This document shows, in pieces, positions 1-14,241 of a DNA stretch of 16,231 nt. Position 1 is the first letter of the stretch; the number at the start of each line of letters is the position of its first letter. The stretch spans positions 1-16,231 of the forward strand of contig CAMVRW010000020.1 of the NCBI GenBank assembly GCA_947169985.1, written 5' to 3'. The translations under genes were made by a program, and so were the position numbers. Origin of the DNA: an uncultured Butyrivibrio sp. (GTDB lineage: Bacteria; Bacillota; Clostridia; Lachnospirales; Lachnospiraceae). The notes beneath the pieces are model-generated. The model was not told where the DNA came from, searched no databases, and saw nothing but the letters and a program-made list of their open reading frames with translations.

Positions 1-396
1 AACTCTGAGGTATCTGACAGGTATTGAATAGTAATCCCTGATTTTTTCGACTTCTTCTACGTATTCGTGCTTATATATGTCATTTCTGGACATGTTAAAA
101 GAAATCGGAACTACGGGAAGGTGATTGTCAAAGCAGAATCTTAAGAGTTTACAGGCTACCTCGACCATTTTGATGTCAGCCTTATAAAGAAGATCTTGTT
201 CCTCAAGAACAGGTATGAAATCAGACGGATATTGCATTCCATATTTAGGATCGACCCATCTCATCAAAGCCTCCGCACCGATCATTCGGCCGGTGGAGTG
301 ATTAAACTGCGGTTGATAATAGGCGAAAATATAGCCCTTCTCAAGAGCCTCATCAAAATGACTAAGAAGCTCTTTTTCACTCATCCTTTTCTGCAT
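1..396 (-). CDS. EAL-domain protein (c-di-GMP phosphodiesterase), 3' end outside window
   Basis: The 132 visible codons begin an EAL domain at once: YYQPQF at residues 26-31, then GAEALMRW (E42, L44, R46 form the ExLxR signature) and SFNMSR at 99-104, whose N101 matches a metal-binding Asn. EAL proteins hydrolyse cyclic di-GMP to pGpG. No sensor domain precedes the EAL domain, so either the EAL domain stands alone or partner domains follow beyond position 1. The start at 396 is supported by GGAGG at 403-407 with 6-nt spacing and by an in-frame TAA just upstream. The remaining catalytic residues (second-half Glu, DDFG, Lys) lie outside the window, so activity cannot be judged. The gene stands alone, behind the terminator of the tRNA. 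Family call is firm; function is inferred. Confidence 0.9.
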   Translation of the reverse strand, partial: MQKRMSEKELLSHFDEALEKGYIFAYYQPQFNHSTGRMIGAEALMRWVDPKYGMQYPSDFIPVLEEQDLLYKADIKMVEVACKLLRFCFDNHLPVVPISFNMSRNDIYKHEYVEEVEKIRDYYSIPVRYLRV

Positions 397-2488: not shown

Positions 2489-2758
2489 TTATTTACCTTC
2501 CAGATCTGCCACCCTGACCGGTTCACCGTTCAAAAGAATGTATCCCGGAGGGAGCTTTGACGCGTCTGCCATGGAAGTGTAATGGGTCTTTTCATGCTTG
2601 TGGGGCATAGCCCCTGACTCCCGCCCAAATTTCTTTTTATTAAAGGTATCGTAGTGTTTTACAGGCCCGTTTCCCTGCCCAAGTTTCTTTTTCCTGATAG
2701 CCAGGACTATGTAAGCAATAATCCCCACATAAAGGATCACAAAGATAAATCCATCCAT
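2489..2758 (-). CDS. Small single-span membrane protein of unknown function, 89 aa
   Basis: Residues 2-21 (DGFIFVILYVGIIAYIVLAI) form one hydrophobic span, followed by RKKK. This predicts an N-out, C-in orientation with a soluble, basic and polar tail of about 65 residues ending in PPGYILLNGEPVRVADLEGK. I do not recognise the family. The ATG at 2758 is chosen because GGGAGG lies just upstream. A TTG start at 2794 would add twelve hydrophilic residues. It follows the second sortase by 36 nt, so it may belong to the pilus operon, as a sortase partner or anchor, but this is inference from position only. Confidence 0.6.
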   Translation of the reverse strand: MDGFIFVILYVGIIAYIVLAIRKKKLGQGNGPVKHYDTFNKKKFGRESGAMPHKHEKTHYTSMADASKLPPGYILLNGEPVRVADLEGK

Positions 2759-2794
2759 ACAACCTCCCTCTCGGCGCATTGCCGCATCAACCAA

Positions 2795-3439
2795 CTATTT
2801 TCTCTCATGTCTGCTGTCCCTTACAGCCTTAAGAACATCAGGCTCAGATCCGGTCTCGCTGATCTCTCCTGTAGCTTCACACCTTACTGTCACACGGTTT
2901 GCGCCGCCCACGGTACAGGTAAACATGGTGAAATCCCAGTCACCCTCCTCCATTTCAAAGGAATCATAGGCCCCAAGGGTCTCAATATTGGTCACCTGAT
3001 AATAGAAGCTTCTGCCGTTCATATCCGTCACAATGACGCTGTCGCCGGTCTTCAGCTGGTTCAGATTCCCGAAGTGCTCCGGATAATTGTGACCACAGAC
3101 GATCAGATCATTATCATAAGCCGATCCCATATACCTGCAGATGCTGAGCTTTGCATTAGTCTTGCTCCATTCGTCCTGAACAGGCAGCAAAAGACCTAAT
3201 GACGGTATCTCAACTGTTCCAACAAAGCTGCGACCTACCACATCCACCACAGGCATAGGGCCTGAAAAATCTCCAGGCAGTACTGAAGGAGGCATCTGGT
3301 CTATAACACCCTCCAAAAGCTCTTCAGAAGCCGCTCCTGCCGCCGCATTCTCATTGAAGTTATAACGTACCAGAATTGCAGCAAGGACAATTAAAGCCAC
3401 TCCTATGGCTATATAAATATATCCATGAATCTTCTTCAT
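2795..3439 (-). CDS. Second sortase (class not resolved), 214 aa
   Basis: An N-terminal membrane anchor (residues 6-24) is followed by the sortase beta-barrel: FVGTVEIPSLGLLLPVQ at 72-88, the catalytic His in CGHNY (H117), the catalytic Cys in TMFTC (C175) and the Arg in ANRVTVR (R182). The triad is complete. Unlike the upstream pilus sortase, it lacks a C-terminal membrane span and the class C sequence TCTPYGVNTHR. It has TCTVGGANR instead, so it is a different sortase type, perhaps for wall anchoring of the finished pilus or for the minor pilin. It follows the minor pilin by 81 nt, a gap containing a hairpin and an extended -10 promoter candidate. Sortase identity is firm; substrate is unknown. 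Confidence 0.88.
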   Translation of the reverse strand: MKKIHGYIYIAIGVALIVLAAILVRYNFNENAAAGAASEELLEGVIDQMPPSVLPGDFSGPMPVVDVVGRSFVGTVEIPSLGLLLPVQDEWSKTNAKLSICRYMGSAYDNDLIVCGHNYPEHFGNLNQLKTGDSVIVTDMNGRSFYYQVTNIETLGAYDSFEMEEGDWDFTMFTCTVGGANRVTVRCEATGEISETGSEPDVLKAVRDSRHERK

Positions 3440-3520: not shown

Positions 3521-4675
3521 TTATGCTGTTTTGTTATTTTTCCTGATTCCCTTTACAATGAAGAACACTCCAAGGATCAAAAGGAATGGAAGTGGCCACC
3601 AGAGCTGTCCTGTCTGAGGAAGTCTTTTGGCACCAAGTACCTGCGGCTTTCTAACTGCACCAAGAACCTCAGGAATGCTCCTTATAGCTCCAAGTACATC
3701 CGGAGTCCCAGGAGTTCCGGGAGCATCAGGTGTTCCGGGTGTATCTGGTGTATCCGGAGTGTCAGGCGTATCTGGCGTGTCCGGAGCCTCAGGTGGTGTG
3801 TAAGTATTGGTGCACACAAACTCAAAATCCGTTCCGTACTGGAAGATTTCCATACTACCTGTGTAGCCGTTTCCCGGGTCAACCTCTTCCACTGAATAGC
3901 TGTGGGCTCCAATATTTGACCACTTATAGAACCAATTATTCGAAGCGGAAAGTTCCACTGTAGTCATCAGCTCGCCATCGCAATAAATCCTGAAAGTAAC
4001 GGATGAAGGACGATTTGCCTCATATCCGCTGTCGTTCCAACGCTTTAAAATATGGCAGTTTGTCTTAACATCGTTCTGTAGCTTTGACTTCTTAGGTGAA
4101 GCCTCAGGAGCGTAGTTTACGGTGATTCCACCATCCTCTGCCAACTCAAGAATCGGAACAGGATAAACGAAGTTCACGAAGGAATGTGTGTATCCATCCT
4201 TATCAAGTTTGTCGCTGAGTACATAGTAAACGCCAAGCTTAAGGTCTGTGTAATAGGTCTTTCCATTTCCATCGGAAACGCCTGAAGCTACTGCCGAAAT
4301 GTCTTTTGCATTAATATAATCCAGAAGCTTGTCTGAATCACTTGCCGCCGCATAATCAACGCAGGATTTCCATTCATCGTAGTTGAATCCGTTGTTGAAG
4401 AAATCGCTGTCCGCAAAGCACCCTTTAAACTCATCTGTTATGGTGTACTTGCCCTTTTCGTCGATGGTAGCCACTAGATAGATGTGGGAGGAAACGCCCG
4501 CCAAAAGCTCCTCGTCAACAGACAGGTGGGTGATGGTAAGTGCACCCTTCTTTGCCGTATCTATCGTGGCAGCGCCTGCAGCAAAAGAGCTAACGGCGTT
4601 AATTGACACAGCGGCCAAAAACACAGTTATGAACGTCAATATTCGAATAAGATTTTTCTTTCCTATCCTCTTCAT
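3521..4675 (-). CDS. Minor/basal pilin, LPQTG-anchored, with Cna-B domain, 384 aa
   Basis: A Sec signal peptide (basic MKRIGKK, hydrophobic 10-33) starts a wall-anchored protein. The N-terminal half is a pilin-like domain that ends in ITVNYAPEASPKK (184-196), a possible degenerate pilin motif with Lys195/196. Residues about 200-293 resemble a Cna-B domain with an E-box-like SVEEV (261-265). A Pro-Asp-Thr spacer (298-326) and three VLGA motifs (327-349) lead to the sorting signal LPQTG (352-356), a hydrophobic span and the charged tail KGIRKNNKTA. Length, Pro-rich tail and position after the pilus sortase fit a basal pilin that ties the fibre to peptidoglycan. GAGG lies 6 nt before the ATG; the gap to srtC is 11 nt. 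Confidence 0.85.
   Translation of the reverse strand: MKRIGKKNLIRILTFITVFLAAVSINAVSSFAAGAATIDTAKKGALTITHLSVDEELLAGVSSHIYLVATIDEKGKYTITDEFKGCFADSDFFNNGFNYDEWKSCVDYAAASDSDKLLDYINAKDISAVASGVSDGNGKTYYTDLKLGVYYVLSDKLDKDGYTHSFVNFVYPVPILELAEDGGITVNYAPEASPKKSKLQNDVKTNCHILKRWNDSGYEANRPSSVTFRIYCDGELMTTVELSASNNWFYKWSNIGAHSYSVEEVDPGNGYTGSMEIFQYGTDFEFVCTNTYTPPEAPDTPDTPDTPDTPDTPGTPDAPGTPGTPDVLGAIRSIPEVLGAVRKPQVLGAKRLPQTGQLWWPLPFLLILGVFFIVKGIRKNNKTA
3623..3697 (-). repeat. Three VLGA-(I/V/K)-R motif repeats next to the sorting signal
   Basis: In residues 327-351, VLGAIR, VLGAVR and VLGAKR occur 9-10 residues apart, separated by SIPE and KPQ, and end directly at LPQTG. The unit is basic and hydrophobic, unlike the acidic Pro-rich tract before it. 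Confidence 0.8.
3698..3784 (-). repeat. Pro-Asp-Thr tandem repeat encoded by 9-bp units
   Basis: Residues 298-326 consist of (P-D-T)x5 followed by PGT, PDA, PGT, PGT, PD units. The DNA repeats 9-bp near-copies (for example GTATCTGGT, GTATCCGGA, GTATCTGGC on the plus strand). This is a wall-spanning spacer and a possible site of copy-number change. Confidence 0.85.
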
Positions 4676-4686
4676 AAGTATCCTCG

Positions 4687-5541
4687 TTACTCTTTGTTAC
4701 CCTTCTTCCTTGCAGGTCTCTTTGAAGTCCTGAAAAGGAAAATAATAAATATGATCAGCAGAAGCGGTGCTCCGATAAATGGCGCCACCACTAAATTGCC
4801 CATTCTTGTGGCATCTGCCGGTACGATCAGTTTAGTTTCTTCATTATAGTCAACACGCTTTGCCCGGACAAGAAGTCTGTGGGTATTTACACCGTAGGGT
4901 GTACATGTTACCAGCGTGACATATTCTTTGTCATTTACGATTGCCAGATTCTGTGTCTCTTCCGGCAATACGATGTTGATCTGATCAACCTGATAAGCGA
5001 AGGTCTGATCCATTACGTGTAAAAGAAATGAATCCCCCACGATCATCTGATCCAGATCTGTAAACAGTTTAGCAGAAGGCAGTCCCCTGTGTCCTGAAAG
5101 CACTACGTGGGTGCCCTTCGTTCCCGTAGGAAAAGAGGTTCCTTCCAAATGTCCTATACCTACCTGAAGAACGGATTCCTCAGTTCCATGGTATATAGGA
5201 AGATTAACTCCGATGTTTTCTATCTCTATTGTACCTATGATCCCGGTACCTGTGGGATCCAGAATACTGTTGTACTCTGCAAGTTCCTCTTCTGAAAGAG
5301 TAAAGCTCATGGGTCTTGTTACAAGATCCTCGTTATATCTTTTTGCTGCTTCCCAGAATTCGCTGTAGTCTTTTTCTGAAAGTGCACTCAGTGCCGCATC
5401 GTAGGAAGCTACCGCCCGGCTCTGATGCTTGGAGTTAATGTAATTACTTACTGACGGATATAAGAATACCGCAATACCCGCCACAAATATCAGTGAAAAT
5501 ATTATACTGGGTATTTTCTTTTTAAGTGTTTCTTTGTTCAT
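4687..5541 (-). CDS. srtC: Class C pilus-polymerising sortase, 284 aa
   Basis: Class C sortases join pilin subunits by cleaving LPxTG-type motifs and passing the acyl group to a pilin lysine. Here an N-terminal span (11-29) and a C-terminal span (about 250-270, then RTSKRPARKK) flank the barrel. PIYHGT (115-120), VLSGHRGLPSAKLFTDLD with His151, and VTCTPYGVNTHRLLVR with Cys213 and Arg222 are class C hallmarks. I see no clear DPW/DPF lid; only LDPTG at 94-98, which is probably the start of the barrel. The gene follows the major pilin by 137 nt, a gap with two hairpins. Its Shine-Dalgarno site is poor (AGGG against the ATG), consistent with less enzyme than pilin. Confidence 0.93.
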   Translation of the reverse strand: MNKETLKKKIPSIIFSLIFVAGIAVFLYPSVSNYINSKHQSRAVASYDAALSALSEKDYSEFWEAAKRYNEDLVTRPMSFTLSEEELAEYNSILDPTGTGIIGTIEIENIGVNLPIYHGTEESVLQVGIGHLEGTSFPTGTKGTHVVLSGHRGLPSAKLFTDLDQMIVGDSFLLHVMDQTFAYQVDQINIVLPEETQNLAIVNDKEYVTLVTCTPYGVNTHRLLVRAKRVDYNEETKLIVPADATRMGNLVVAPFIGAPLLLIIFIIFLFRTSKRPARKKGNKE

Positions 5542-5678: not shown

Positions 5679-7118
5679 TTACTCTGCTGCGCCCTTTCTG
5701 CGAAGGATGAAGTATGCAACAGCTGCAATAACAAGAACTGCACCAACAATGTAGAAGATTGTTGTTCCGATTCCACCAGTTGAAGGAAGGAGTGTTCCCT
5801 TGTTGTTTGCGATTGTAAGAAGCTCTGTAAACGTCTGCTGTTCAACAGGCTTATTATCATCGCCAAGAACTACTACAGGATTATATGTGCCAACAGTATC
5901 TTCTGAAACAGTAAGTGGCTGAGGTCCATTTAAAAGATTGTATCCCGTAAGTGTCTCTGTCTCTGTAAGTGTGTAGCCTGTACCAAGATCAAGACCACGG
6001 ATCATGATGTATCCATCAGCATTAGTCTCTACAGTTGATGACTGTGAAGTTGCGTCTGCATAGTAGTATCCATCAGTATGCTTTGTAACCTTAACTGGAG
6101 TTCCGTTATTCGCAAGAGTAAACTTAACGCCTGCAAGCTTTGTTCCGTCTACACCGTCATACTTATATGCAGCTGCTCTGTAAAGCTTGAACTTTACTGT
6201 ATCTTCCTGATGATAGTTGCCATACTGGATAGAAACATCGTTCTTCTTTCCGTTATCTACTATAGCATCTTTATTTACAACTGCTGTAAATGTGATGGTT
6301 GATGTTGTTGCTGCACCAGAGTTCTTAGGAAGCTCTACTTTAAATGTTCTTCCATTAACTACAGCTGCTGTACCTTCGCCATAACCTGTTACAACGATCT
6401 CTCCGTCAGGATCAAAATCAAGTCCAGCTGACATTGTATCAGTTACAACGATCTTGTCACTTGTACCTGCAGGTACTGTAACAGTGATCTGGTAATAAAC
6501 CTTTTCGCCAACACCTACGTTTACATCTGCATCAGCGTATTCTCCATTTACGCTATCTTTCTGTTTCTTGTCTGCCTTAGGATAAGTATTCTTCTCTGTA
6601 AGCTCTGCATGTCCAAGAGTCTGTATAACAGCATTTGTTCCGATTGTAGATGTGATGTAGTAGTAACCATCTGTAAGTCCTTCAATTTTTGTAGTCTCAC
6701 CCGTACTTGTAATTGAGCCGGTTTTAAACAAATCAAGTTTGAAAGATGCTTCAGCAAATTTAGCTGCAATAGCCTTAGCTGTTTCTTCTTTAGTTGCATC
6801 CTTTCCATCAGCAAGCTCGATTACATAATGATCTGAGCTAACTTCTGTAGCCTTGAAATATCCTGTTCCTGTAAGGGCGTCGGCCTTTGCCTTAGTATCT
6901 ACATAATAAGCTGCAGTTGTTGCCTTTCCATCTTTATCAGTAACAACAGTTGCATCCATCATTTTGTACCAGGTATAGGTCTGCTGTTCCTGATTGGTTG
7001 CCTCGGTATAAGAATCATCTCTTGTGATAGTGATGTCTGCAGCGCATACGTTCAGGGATGATCCCATAATGAGGGTGGCTGCAAGAATGCCGGTTAATAG
7101 TTTCTTAATTCCTTTCAT
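5679..7118 (-). CDS. Major (backbone) pilin, LPSTG-anchored, 479 aa
   Basis: This is a backbone pilin. It has a signal peptide (1-26, ending VCAA), an N-terminal domain ending in the pilin motif NTYPK (Lys181, the expected cross-linking lysine), a middle domain (about 195-308) resembling an isopeptide-forming fimbrial domain, and a C-terminal Cna-B-like domain (about 310-440) with the E-box YTLTETE (Glu386). LPSTG (444-448), a hydrophobic span and RRKGAAE complete the sorting signal. Its Shine-Dalgarno AAAGGAG, 7 nt before the ATG, is the best in the cluster and fits a highly made structural protein. Subunits would be polymerised by the class C sortase encoded next. Exact isopeptide partners cannot be assigned by eye. 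Confidence 0.92.
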   Translation of the reverse strand: MKGIKKLLTGILAATLIMGSSLNVCAADITITRDDSYTEATNQEQQTYTWYKMMDATVVTDKDGKATTAAYYVDTKAKADALTGTGYFKATEVSSDHYVIELADGKDATKEETAKAIAAKFAEASFKLDLFKTGSITSTGETTKIEGLTDGYYYITSTIGTNAVIQTLGHAELTEKNTYPKADKKQKDSVNGEYADADVNVGVGEKVYYQITVTVPAGTSDKIVVTDTMSAGLDFDPDGEIVVTGYGEGTAAVVNGRTFKVELPKNSGAATTSTITFTAVVNKDAIVDNGKKNDVSIQYGNYHQEDTVKFKLYRAAAYKYDGVDGTKLAGVKFTLANNGTPVKVTKHTDGYYYADATSQSSTVETNADGYIMIRGLDLGTGYTLTETETLTGYNLLNGPQPLTVSEDTVGTYNPVVVLGDDNKPVEQQTFTELLTIANNKGTLLPSTGGIGTTIFYIVGAVLVIAAVAYFILRRKGAAE

Positions 7119-12615: not shown

Positions 12616-13194
12616 TTATAATCCGCCAAATGCTCCAAATGGATAAATCCTGAATACTATCTTTCCGATGAGCTGCTCCTTTGTCACGCAGCCAACGGCG
12701 TTTGATCTTGAATCAATTGATGCCTGTCTGTGGTCTCCCAGTACGAAGTACCTATTCTCAGGGACCTGATAGGGAAAAGAAATATCGGAGGGTTCCAAAC
12801 TCTTATCTGAAACATAATCCTCTTGTATCATGTTGCCATTTACTGATACATTTCCTTCGCTGTCGATGTCCACCCAGTCCCCGGGAGAGCCGAGAACTCT
12901 TTTAACTAAAACCTTGTTGTTGTAATAAAAAGCGATCAGATCTCCCGGCTCAAATGCGCTGGAGTTCTGTGCTATTACTATCTCTCCTGTCTGAAGTGTG
13001 GGAGTCATGGACTCTCCGGTAACTCTAAGTACTGTTATAAAGAAACTGGAGACCAGCACTGCTAATGCTGCCACAACCACTACCACGATCAGTGTATTTC
13101 TAAGAACTTTTCTGTATTCTTTTTTACTGTTCTCTCTCTTTAGCTCAGCCTTAAGCTGCTCAACAGAGGGCTTTTCAAACTGCTTCTCGCTCAT
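12616..13194 (-). CDS. lepB: Type I signal peptidase in the pilus operon, 192 aa
   Basis: Signal peptidase I removes Sec signal peptides at the outer face of the membrane. One membrane span (about 33-54) precedes box B GESMTPTL with the nucleophile Ser62. Box D LVKRVLGSPGD supplies the general base Lys98, and box E reads GDHRQASIDSRS. The catalytic Ser-Lys pair is intact, unlike the catalytically dead SipA-type proteins known in some streptococcal pilus loci. The gene overlaps the upstream coiled-coil gene by 20 nt in another frame, implying translational coupling, and ends 22 nt before the adhesin. It probably serves the pilins of this operon, in particular the adhesin with its unusual signal region; that is inference. 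Confidence 0.93.
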   Translation of the reverse strand: MSEKQFEKPSVEQLKAELKRENSKKEYRKVLRNTLIVVVVVAALAVLVSSFFITVLRVTGESMTPTLQTGEIVIAQNSSAFEPGDLIAFYYNNKVLVKRVLGSPGDWVDIDSEGNVSVNGNMIQEDYVSDKSLEPSDISFPYQVPENRYFVLGDHRQASIDSRSNAVGCVTKEQLIGKIVFRIYPFGAFGGL

Positions 13195-13822: not shown

Positions 13823-13858
13823 TTTACTTCCTTAAAACCTTATAAAGCGCAAAAATAA

Positions 13859-13895
13859 TGGTATTTCACGTCACCTTTTTGTGCGCAAAATACCA
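13859..13895 (-). terminator. Second terminator-like hairpin in the pilus operon leader
   Basis: TGGTATTT (13895-13888) pairs with AAATACCA (13866-13859). Inside, two wobble pairs and CGCAC/GTG(A)CG extend the stem to about 15 bp with one bulged A and a short A-rich loop. TTATTTTT follows on the minus strand. It lies 36 nt before the first start codon, downstream of the riboswitch terminator. It may be a second attenuation point or a leader structure controlling translation. Confidence 0.55.
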
Positions 13896-13991
13896 CAACT
13901 ATCTACCGTACCATCTTATTCGATAAGGTCGACGCAATCACAAAAAAGCCAATTGAAACTAAATGTCCTTTATGAATTATTACAAACACAT

Positions 13992-14024
13992 AAAAATAGA
14001 CCGTGGTGTTTACAGCCTCGGTCC
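13992..14024 (-). terminator. Intrinsic terminator serving as riboswitch expression platform
   Basis: GACCGAGG (14023-14016) pairs with CCACGGTC (14006-13999) at seven of eight positions and is followed by TATTTTTA. It begins 24 nt after the aptamer, so ligand-dependent termination is the simplest mechanism. ACAGCC in the aptamer core (14061-14056) can also pair with GGCTGT (14017-14012), and TGGTG (14049-14045) with CACCA (14008-14004). Both are candidate antiterminator contacts. Confidence 0.75.
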
Positions 14025-14047
14025 TTCTTTTGGCGCCTATCCAGCAC

Positions 14048-14143
14048 CAGCAACTGGCTGTCTGTCACATACACATAACCGTGATTGAGACCCTTTAGTT
14101 TTGCGTCACCATCTTTCGATGGCTTTGCCCTTATATTCTGCTG
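14048..14143 (-). ncRNA. Cyclic di-GMP-I (GEMM) riboswitch aptamer
   Basis: The minus strand carries the GEMM core: GGGCAAAGCC, a GAAA-capped stem (GCCATC/GATGGT), the conserved GACGCAAA, then CTAAAGGG. A second arm is built from GTCT/AGAC and TCAC/GTGA, followed by the conserved AGCCAGTTGC. The closing helix is CAGCA (14143-14139) with TGCTG (14052-14048). The spacing and tetraloop agree with the c-di-GMP-I family, in which the loop docks on a receptor in the second arm and c-di-GMP binds at the three-way junction. It lies 226 nt upstream of the first pilus gene and reads in the same direction. Confidence 0.9.
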
Positions 14144-14212
14144 AGATAACGCAAAAGAAAAATAAACCTAGTAACAACTAAATTTAATCGCGTTCCCCGT
14201 ATCGCAATAACA

Positions 14213-14241
14213 AATATAATATAGTTTGTTTAGAAATGCAA
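14213..14241 (-). promoter_or_regulatory. Promoter candidate for the riboswitch and pilus operon
   Basis: TTGCAT (14241-14236), a 17-nt spacer and TATATT (14218-14213) give a sigma-A-like promoter with a good -10 and a weak -35. It would start RNA about 63 nt before the aptamer. The whole region 14144-14359 is AT-rich and holds no gene; other promoter placements are possible. Confidence 0.45.

What the first reader, a model, noticed from the sequence alone, without database searches (positions are those of the whole stretch)
13823..14241. Sortase-assembled pilus operon under a c-di-GMP-I riboswitch with an intrinsic terminator
A well-formed GEMM aptamer (14143-14048) is followed 24 nt later by a terminator (14024-13992) and then the seven- or eight-gene pilus cluster, all in one orientation. 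c-di-GMP riboswitches are known to control flagella, type IV pili and some surface proteins in clostridia. A whole sortase pilus operon with its own signal peptidase and two sortases under one such switch seems little described. The aptamer core can pair with the terminator's 5' arm (ACAGCC with GGCTGT). This would make ligand binding favour termination (c-di-GMP off), but I hold that direction weakly.
Basis: partly seen in the sequence, partly recalled or inferred. Interest (0 to 1): 0.85.

Follow-up and report, generated by a model that had tools for sequence, protein, structure and literature searches.

The report
Pilus operon behind c-di-GMP riboswitch
In rumen bacteria of the genus Butyrivibrio, the operon that builds a sortase-assembled surface pilus starts with an RNA switch that should sense the messenger c-di-GMP, and in many relatives this switch is followed by a second RNA control element that looks made for the flagellum-linked protein CsrA, which the genome studied here has lost.

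Summary
Rfam finds a c-di-GMP-I aptamer at 14139-14046 (-), 64.7 bits, E 5.7e-11. A terminator-like hairpin follows (T1, 14024-13998), then eight genes with signal peptidase, LPXTG pilins, a class C sortase and a second sortase. The genome is a Butyrivibrio MAG. A c-di-GMP-I-clan aptamer lies directly before gene 1 in 48 of the 60 congeners with gene 1. None was found upstream of 20 sortase-C loci outside the genus. Folding favours an OFF switch, but controls are weak. In 36 of 47 aptamer leaders a structured element lies between T1 and T2: an ANGGA hexaloop hairpin, usually plus a second ANGGA. It fits the CsrA consensus and covaries in part; Rfam knew none in 16 leaders. CsrA is in 47 of 47 near-complete congeners. 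The window lacks this element. Best reading: a known riboswitch class on a little-described target, in a two-stage leader that in many relatives may also take CsrA as input. There are no binding or expression data.

The parts
14213..14241 (-). promoter-like TTGCAT-17 nt-TATATT; start expected near 14206
   Evidence: read from the sequence; TATATT also in many relatives by eye; below the cut-off of the promoter scan
14046..14139 (-). c-di-GMP-I (GEMM-I) aptamer
   Evidence: RF01051, 64.7 bits, E 5.7e-11
14032..14048 (-). post-aptamer hairpin GGTGC/GCGCC
   Evidence: folds; varies with pairing kept in relatives by eye
13998..14024 (-). terminator 1 (T1), T-rich tail 13997-13990; 5' arm GGCTGT can pair with aptamer ACAGCC 14061-14056
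13950..13989 (-). place where 36 of 47 aptamer leaders carry the CsrA-type element; here missing, with a lone AAAGGA at 13971-13966
   Evidence: patchy alignment with closest relative L033, 52 nt shorter between T1 and start codon; no site-1 hairpin
13858..13896 (-). terminator 2 (T2) just before the first gene
   Evidence: -18.5 kcal/mol hairpin with T-rich tail; a T2-like hairpin in 41 of the 46 leaders scored
13175..13822 (-). gene 1: 215-aa protein, coiled-coil by look, no NCBIfam family, only a Pfam Apolipoprotein match below cut-off
12616..13194 (-). signal peptidase I
   Evidence: TIGR02227 123.3 bits, PF10502
7212..12593 (-). 1793-aa LPNSG surface protein, candidate tip or accessory pilin, one Cna_B domain
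   Evidence: PF05738; sorting motif by eye
5679..7118 (-). major pilin, SpaH/EbpB-like, LPSTG
   Evidence: TIGR04226 64.1 bits, PF17802, PF16569, PF00746; NF033902 below cut-off
4687..5541 (-). class C (pilus) sortase
   Evidence: NF033745 266.3 bits, cut-off 160
3521..4675 (-). 384-aa Cna_B protein with LPQTG, candidate base or accessory pilin
   Evidence: PF05738; motif by eye
2795..3439 (-). second sortase, class not assigned
   Evidence: PF04203 54.5 bits; the NCBIfam sortase models matched are all below cut-off
2489..2794 (-). 101-aa small protein, no family; a relative was matched in 1 of 20 named loci (L087)

Best explanation
A c-di-GMP-I riboswitch sits at the head of the Butyrivibrio sortase-pilus operon and controls whether transcription passes terminator T1. 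Without ligand, the aptamer's ACAGCC pairs with T1's 5' arm and RNA polymerase reads through; with c-di-GMP bound, that strand is held in the aptamer, T1 forms and the operon is off (direction inferred). A second likely attenuator, T2, sits just before the first gene. In 36 of 47 aptamer leaders of the genus a structured element between T1 and T2 presents an ANGGA hairpin, mostly with a second ANGGA, that most likely binds CsrA. Because those sites lie about 120-230 nt before the first start codon, CsrA would act on T2 or on RNA stability rather than by covering the ribosome site. In this genome the CsrA element is missing, so c-di-GMP acting at T1 is the main input left. Shown: aptamer, terminator-like hairpins, operon, conservation, and covariation of the element's P3 hairpin. 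Inferred: ligand binding, direction, CsrA binding and its effect.
For: Covariance match. Clan aptamer directly before gene 1 in 48 of 60 genomes that have gene 1. In 18 of 20 named Butyrivibrio loci the order FlgE-aptamer-ANGGA hairpin-gene 1-signal peptidase-large LPXTG-pilin-srtC-anchor-srt2-mecA is kept; L089 lacks FlgE, hairpin and mecA in the stretch held, and L085 is a short contig without the leader (some of these records are the same contigs as G genomes, so they are not extra evidence). 41 GGDEF matches in the MAG, 39 over the cut-off, so c-di-GMP is likely made. The free ensemble, with the antiterminator best, beats the aptamer-constrained one by 4.4-4.9 kcal/mol while RNA polymerase is at 14012-14003. 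Element: hexaloop hairpin in 36 of 47 aptamer leaders, 35 of 46 against 0.97 expected in shuffles; ANGGA at site 2 in 32 of 36; P3 with changes on both sides in 6 of 6 pairs, and for the whole three-helix structure a covariation score of 0.448 against 0.186, 0 of 500 shuffles. CsrA in 73 of 79 congeners and 47 of 47 near-complete ones; own csrA next to fliW and a flgL-like gene; consensus RUACARGGAUGU with GGA in a hairpin loop in passages of PMC4347634.
Against: Antiterminator pairing barely exceeds shuffles for T1 (7.1 against 5.5 over 43 leaders, three of them with T1 mis-set; 2 of 43 at 5%; window 15% of shuffles as high). T2's antiterminator is not supported in the window (5.1 against 9.4), though it is over all (12.4 against 8.6, 13 of 41 at 5%). 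The Rfam aptamer fold is not the minimum at any stage folded without ligand, 3.4-4.9 kcal/mol above the free ensemble. Class I switches can be ON (Bc2). 12 of 60 gene-1 loci have no aptamer match within 900 nt. The window itself lacks the CsrA element, and 10 further aptamer leaders do too. The GTAC helix of the element has no covariation support, and three of four pairs of the site-1 stem do not vary in the subset. Two incomplete MAGs with the element (G006, G021) gave no CsrA match. The window genome's listed flagellin L160 shows no CsrA-type ribosome-site motif. Leaders are related by descent, so counts are not independent. No binding, transcript or expression data.
Confidence: 0.68

Rival explanations
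1. The riboswitch is an ON switch: c-di-GMP promotes pilus expression, as for the Bc2-controlled collagen adhesin of B. thuringiensis and, with class II switches, C. difficile adhesins and type IV pili.
For: Bc2 is class I and ON, and controls an LPXTG adhesin (passages); c-di-GMP usually favours adhesion.
Against: T1 does not overlap the aptamer and can form with it in place; the competing pairing uses the aptamer's own ACAGCC. The seven functional class I switches of C. difficile are all OFF (passages).
Confidence: 0.22
2. The second element in relatives is an orphan riboswitch aptamer or a site for another RNA-binding protein, not CsrA.
For: A junction-like build with strong covariation in P3 looks aptamer-like; no binding data; two incomplete MAGs with the element gave no CsrA match.
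Against: The ten columns invariant in 36 sequences lie in the site-1 hairpin (seven) and the two GTAC strands (three); the ANGGA motifs match the CsrA consensus; some flagellin leaders carry the same type of hairpin; csrA-fliW is present.
Confidence: 0.2
3. T2 is not regulated: it is an RNA-stability or processing hairpin, or a weak constitutive attenuator.
For: In the window T2's 5' arm has fewer upstream pairing partners than shuffles (5.1 against 9.4).
Against: A T2-like hairpin with T-rich tail in 41 of 46 leaders scored, directly before the gene; antiterminator pairing above shuffles at 5% in 13 of 41.
Confidence: 0.35
4. The leader is a decayed riboswitch without regulatory effect in this strain.
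For: Only one such switch in the incomplete MAG; part of the leader is missing.
Against: Full-length aptamer match, 64.7 bits, and an intact T1.
Confidence: 0.07

Closest known systems
Cd1 / Cdi-1-3 class I riboswitch of the C. difficile flgB operon
   Same: c-di-GMP-I switch acting by transcription termination in the 5' leader of a surface-organelle operon; OFF (passages)
   Different: controls flagella, not a sortase pilus; no second terminator or CsrA module mentioned in the passages read
Bc2 class I riboswitch of B. thuringiensis cbpA/cap
   Same: c-di-GMP-I switch before an LPXTG, Cna_B-type surface protein (passages)
   Different: a single adhesin gene, ON; no pilus sortase in the passages read
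Class II switches of C. difficile (pilA1 type IV pili; CD630_28310 and CD630_32460 sortase substrates)
   Same: c-di-GMP control of pili or sortase substrates by riboswitch (passages)
   Different: different aptamer class; ON; type IV pili or single adhesins rather than a class C sortase pilus
E. coli moaA leader (Moco riboswitch + CsrA) and L. pneumophila thi leader (TPP riboswitch + CsrA)
   Same: riboswitch and CsrA sites in one leader (passages)
   Different: there CsrA sites lie in or overlap the aptamer; in Butyrivibrio relatives they form a separate module after T1 and before T2; different ligand and phylum
B. subtilis hag leader (CsrA-FliW)
   Same: two CsrA sites and the csrA-fliW pair (passages); 16 of 30 Butyrivibrio flagellin leaders looked at have ANGGA at the ribosome site and upstream
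   Different: at hag CsrA covers the ribosome site; here the sites lie 123-230 nt upstream, before a terminator

Membership tests
c-di-GMP-I (GEMM-I) riboswitch RF01051 | full-length covariance-model match over the curated cut-off | tested here: met
   64.7 bits, cut-off 35, positions 1-87 of 87
c-di-GMP-I (GEMM-I) riboswitch RF01051 | ligand-contact bases (G20, A47, C92 in Vc2 numbering, recalled); G rather than A at position 20 separates it from the cGAMP-type variant (recalled) | tested here: met
   GGGCAAA, GACGCAAA and the C of TTGCTGG in the alignment, placed by eye; numbering from memory
c-di-GMP-I (GEMM-I) riboswitch RF01051 | binds c-di-GMP | not testable with these tools
   needs in-line probing or ITC
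Riboswitch of OFF type acting by transcription termination | terminator and mutually exclusive antiterminator that uses aptamer bases | tested here: inconclusive
   predicted, but pairing only weakly above shuffles
Sortase-assembled (class C) pilus operon | class C sortase | tested here: met
   NF033745 266.3 against cut-off 160
Sortase-assembled (class C) pilus operon | major pilin with isopeptide domain and LPXTG anchor, plus further LPXTG subunits | tested here: met
   TIGR04226, PF00746; LPNSG, LPSTG, LPQTG by eye; NF033902 itself below cut-off
Sortase-assembled (class C) pilus operon | covalent polymer on cells | not testable with these tools
   needs SDS-resistant ladders or microscopy
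CsrA-regulated leader (window) | ANGGA in a hairpin loop | tested here: not met
   no site-1 hairpin in the window, only an AAAGGA without a stem
CsrA-regulated leader (relatives) | ANGGA hexaloop hairpin plus second ANGGA; CsrA encoded | tested here: met
   hairpin in 36 of 47 aptamer leaders, second ANGGA in 32 of those 36; csrA in 73 of 79 genomes
CsrA-regulated leader (relatives) | CsrA binds and changes expression | not testable with these tools
   no binding data

The most novel reading that the evidence does not exclude
Butyrivibrio pilus operons are led by a two-stage, two-input attenuator: a c-di-GMP-I riboswitch gates T1, and a separate, covarying RNA element read by CsrA, and so by the FliW flagellar checkpoint, gates T2. 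Pilus expression would then require both low c-di-GMP and a particular state of flagellar assembly. This would be a c-di-GMP/CsrA composite leader and a new kind of CsrA target in Gram-positives; some lineages, such as the one in this window, have dropped the CsrA stage.
Probability: 0.45. Interest if true: 0.8.

Novelty: new variant of a known kind. Interest (0 to 1): 0.62.

Why it matters
Class C sortase pili are a main adhesion organelle of Gram-positives (recalled), and my searches listed no printed case of a whole such operon under a c-di-GMP riboswitch. If the switch is OFF, c-di-GMP would repress a pilus, against the usual rule that it favours adhesion. The CsrA-type element in relatives, if real, joins the c-di-GMP and FliW-CsrA circuits in one leader, and would add a structural-organelle target to the few described for CsrA in B. 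subtilis (hag, and ahrC/SR1; passages).

Tried and rejected
Rfam for the second element: in the 16 leaders given, nothing but the aptamer clan reached its cut-off; the best other hit was ARRPOF at 26 bits against a cut-off of 127.2. RNAalifold on the 36-sequence alignment gave only the site-1 hairpin because P3 lengths misalign; a subset of 18 of the 36, chosen by me for alike architecture, was then used for pair counts with a structure that I drew, so that score is for the subset. In it P3 covaries (6 of 6 pairs), the site-1 stem has one pair of four with a change on both sides, and the GTAC helix none. Long-range pairing between aptamer CCAGTTGC and a GCAACTGG segment before T2 is at 5% or better in 10 of 44 leaders tested (eight at 2% or better) and not above shuffles in the rest, the window included (11.5%); not used as a main claim. 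Ligand change to cGAMP: not favoured (G at position 20; numbering recalled). Classical CsrA blocking of the ribosome: rejected for sites 1 and 2 by distance. Aptamer-plus-sortase-pilus outside the genus: 20 stretches were fetched that hold 23 of the 28 non-genus sortase-C matches, in 17 of 18 genomes; five matches (G110, G159:C232, G203:C48, G218:C42, G218:C17) were not fetched. None of the 20 had a c-di-GMP switch in up to 12 kb upstream; at least eight were much shorter because the contig began or ended. First open frames after the aptamer in 15 out-of-genus loci: none looked like a pilin or sortase by eye. Gene 1 homologues: 163 found, 120 listed; the source names given in that list were Butyrivibrio or plain 'hypothetical protein'.

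Limits of scripts: the aptamer regex missed L103, which Rfam found. The Rfam hits of L103, L111 and L119 are to variant families of the clan and below those families' own cut-offs; one search lists RF01051 matches over the cut-off at the same places. The terminator script found no T1 in L056, L092 and L094, mis-set it in L060, L061 and L091 because its tail rule did not fit them, and skipped L119. The motif control used 46 of 47 leaders (one too short) and required A at loop position 1. The printed alignment was cut in its middle.

Full report
What was checked. The window comes from a MAG (2.53 Mb, 67% complete). The c-di-GMP-I model RF01051 matches 14139-14046 (-) over its whole length (64.7 bits), the only match in this MAG. 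T1 lies at 14024-13998. The gene cluster is annotated: a coiled-coil-like protein of no assigned family, signal peptidase I, a 1793-aa LPNSG protein, a SpaH/EbpB-like major pilin, a class C sortase, an LPQTG Cna_B protein, a second sortase and a small protein, then MecA. Upstream is a flagellar hook-family gene (16215-14419) followed by its own terminator-like hairpin at 14388-14369.

Conservation. Gene 1 has a match in 60 of 79 congeneric genomes and the class C sortase in 64 of 79. A c-di-GMP-I-clan aptamer begins about 200-610 nt before gene 1 in 48 of the 60: 47 by motif (30 of 30, 17 of 30), one more by Rfam (L103). Of the other 12, which have no match within 900 nt, five (G029, G022, G054, G011, G036) have an RF01051 match about 6 kb further upstream on the same strand (positions). 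Three of those five leaders (L109, L115, L117) were printed, and by eye the end of another LPXTG gene stands shortly before gene 1. Among 20 named Butyrivibrio loci, 18 show the order from FlgE to MecA; the small protein was matched in one of them only (L087). L089 keeps aptamer and operon but shows no FlgE, hairpin or mecA in the stretch held, and L085 is a short contig without the leader. Some named loci are the same contigs as G genomes. Outside the genus, 20 stretches holding 23 of 28 class C sortase matches, from 17 of 18 genomes, had no c-di-GMP switch in up to 12 kb upstream.

Direction of the switch. Folding the window's leader as it grows, the antiterminator ACAGCC (14061-14056): GGCTGT (14017-14012) is in the best structure once T1's 5' arm is out and before its 3' arm is made. 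The Rfam aptamer fold then costs 4.4-4.9 kcal/mol relative to the free ensemble; it is above the minimum (3.4 or more) at every stage folded, since ligand is not modelled. Later, T1 and the aptamer are compatible. Ligand energy should outweigh that cost (inference). This gives OFF. Against it, pairing of T1's arm to the aptamer is only 7.1 against 5.5 expected pairs in shuffles over 43 leaders, and in the window 15% of shuffles do as well. In print, the functional class I switches of C. difficile are OFF, but Bc2 of B. thuringiensis is ON (passages of PMC6366702 and PMC7423583). I put OFF at about 0.7.

A second terminator. T2 at 13896-13858 (-18.5 kcal/mol) with a T-rich tail ends 35 nt before gene 1. 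A T2-like hairpin was found in 41 of 46 leaders scored. A terminator placed there must be escaped for the operon to be made. In several relatives an upstream segment can pair with T2's 5' arm; over 41 leaders this exceeds shuffles (12.4 against 8.6, 13 of 41 at 5%), but not in the window (5.1 against 9.4).

The element between T1 and T2. In 36 of 47 aptamer leaders there is a hairpin with a six-base loop (A/G)NGGAN and a stem of at least four pairs. Dinucleotide shuffles predict 0.97 where 35 of 46 are seen, and no other loop triplet comes near (GGA 36 of 47, next best 15). Its stem reads GTTC/GAAC 30 times, GCTC/GAGC 4, ACTC/GAGT 1, GTTC/GAAT 1, and 32 of 36 carry a second ANGGA, the two 30-42 nt apart; the other four have near misses. 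Between them is a hairpin P3 whose six pairs all have changes on both sides in an 18-sequence subset; in the same subset the GTAC helix that should close the element has no such change, and one of its pairs fails in 4 of 18. The exact two-site pattern occurs 23 times in 79 genomes, 18 of them at this leader, with no match for the reversed control. In 285 non-genus genomes of the order it occurs once, in a place I did not examine. Rfam gave no such family over its cut-off in the 16 leaders searched.

Why CsrA. PMC4347634 (passages) gives the consensus RUACARGGAUGU with GGA in hairpin loops; relatives' leaders read, for example, GTTCAAGGATGAAC and GTACAAGGA. CsrA is found in 73 of 79 congeners and in all 47 near-complete ones; two incomplete MAGs that carry the element (G006, G021) gave no match. 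The window's genome has csrA beside fliW and a flgL-like gene (flgL by eye), and the protein resembles solved CsrA chains. Of 30 flagellin loci, the 16 whose start reads ATGGTA or ATGGTT have an ANGGA at the ribosome site and at least one more upstream, in ten of them with a stem of three or more pairs 41-53 nt before the start, such as CCGCACAAGGATGTGCGG. The other 14, the window genome's L160 among them, do not show the ribosome-site motif. The overall count in that call, 26 of 30 against 3.9 in mononucleotide shuffles, includes sites that probably lie inside an upstream gene. Binding itself is untested. Because sites 1 and 2 lie 123-230 nt before the start codon, CsrA would have to act otherwise than at hag, most likely on T2.

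The window's own state. Against its closest relative (L033; gene 1 83% identical over 177 residues), the window is 52 nt shorter between T1 and the start codon; a patchy alignment places the loss over site 1, P3 and site 2, and T2 remains. Ten further aptamer leaders also lack site 1: L035, L053, L100, L108, L110, L111, L113, L118, L119, L120. So the CsrA part is a statement about the genus, not about this genome.

What is known. C. difficile and B. thuringiensis show c-di-GMP riboswitches before flagella, type IV pili and single sortase substrates (passages). CsrA together with a riboswitch is known for E. coli moaA and L. pneumophila thi (passages). I found no paper on a class C sortase-pilus operon under a c-di-GMP riboswitch, nor on a c-di-GMP riboswitch with a CsrA module in one leader, in searches of the open-licence library. 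I saw the listings of these searches and passages of seven papers, no whole text; subscription papers are largely not held.

Verdict. Real, ordinary in its parts, unusual in its target and, in relatives, in its two-stage build: a new variant of a known kind.

Noticed in passing
window 1-396 (-): Cut-off open frame with an EAL domain (PF00563, 73.3 bits), a c-di-GMP phosphodiesterase-type domain about 2 kb downstream of the pilus cluster; a tRNA, a frame without Pfam family and mecA lie between.
   Followed up: partly
G005, G019, G026, G027, G055, G065 (positions): These congeners have two RF01051 matches about 6 kb apart on one strand, the second directly before gene 1; their leaders lack the CsrA-type hairpin.
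   Followed up: partly
L101, L104 (G050, G062): Leaders with no aptamer match: the 5' part resembles that of the window's close relatives, then other hairpins with AAGGGG in the loop, and a T2-like hairpin is kept (by eye).
   Followed up: no
L100, L108, L113, L118, L120: Hairpins with GAGGGG in or at the loop in leaders that lack the ANGGA hairpin; possibly a variant site (by eye).
   Followed up: no
relatives' leaders; window 14057-14050 with 13955-13948: Aptamer strand CCAGTTGC is complementary to a segment (GCAACTGG; CAATTGGC in the window) before T2; at 5% or better in 10 of 44 leaders, 11.5% in the window, with a matching change in L047/L048.
   Followed up: partly
L103:743-837: Match below cut-off to Clostridiales-1 RNA (32.9 bits, cut-off 48) inside the leader of G058.
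   Followed up: no
window 8423-8369 (-): Match below cut-off to snoRNA sR52 (30.5 bits, cut-off 50) inside the coding region of the large surface protein; taken as chance.
   Followed up: no
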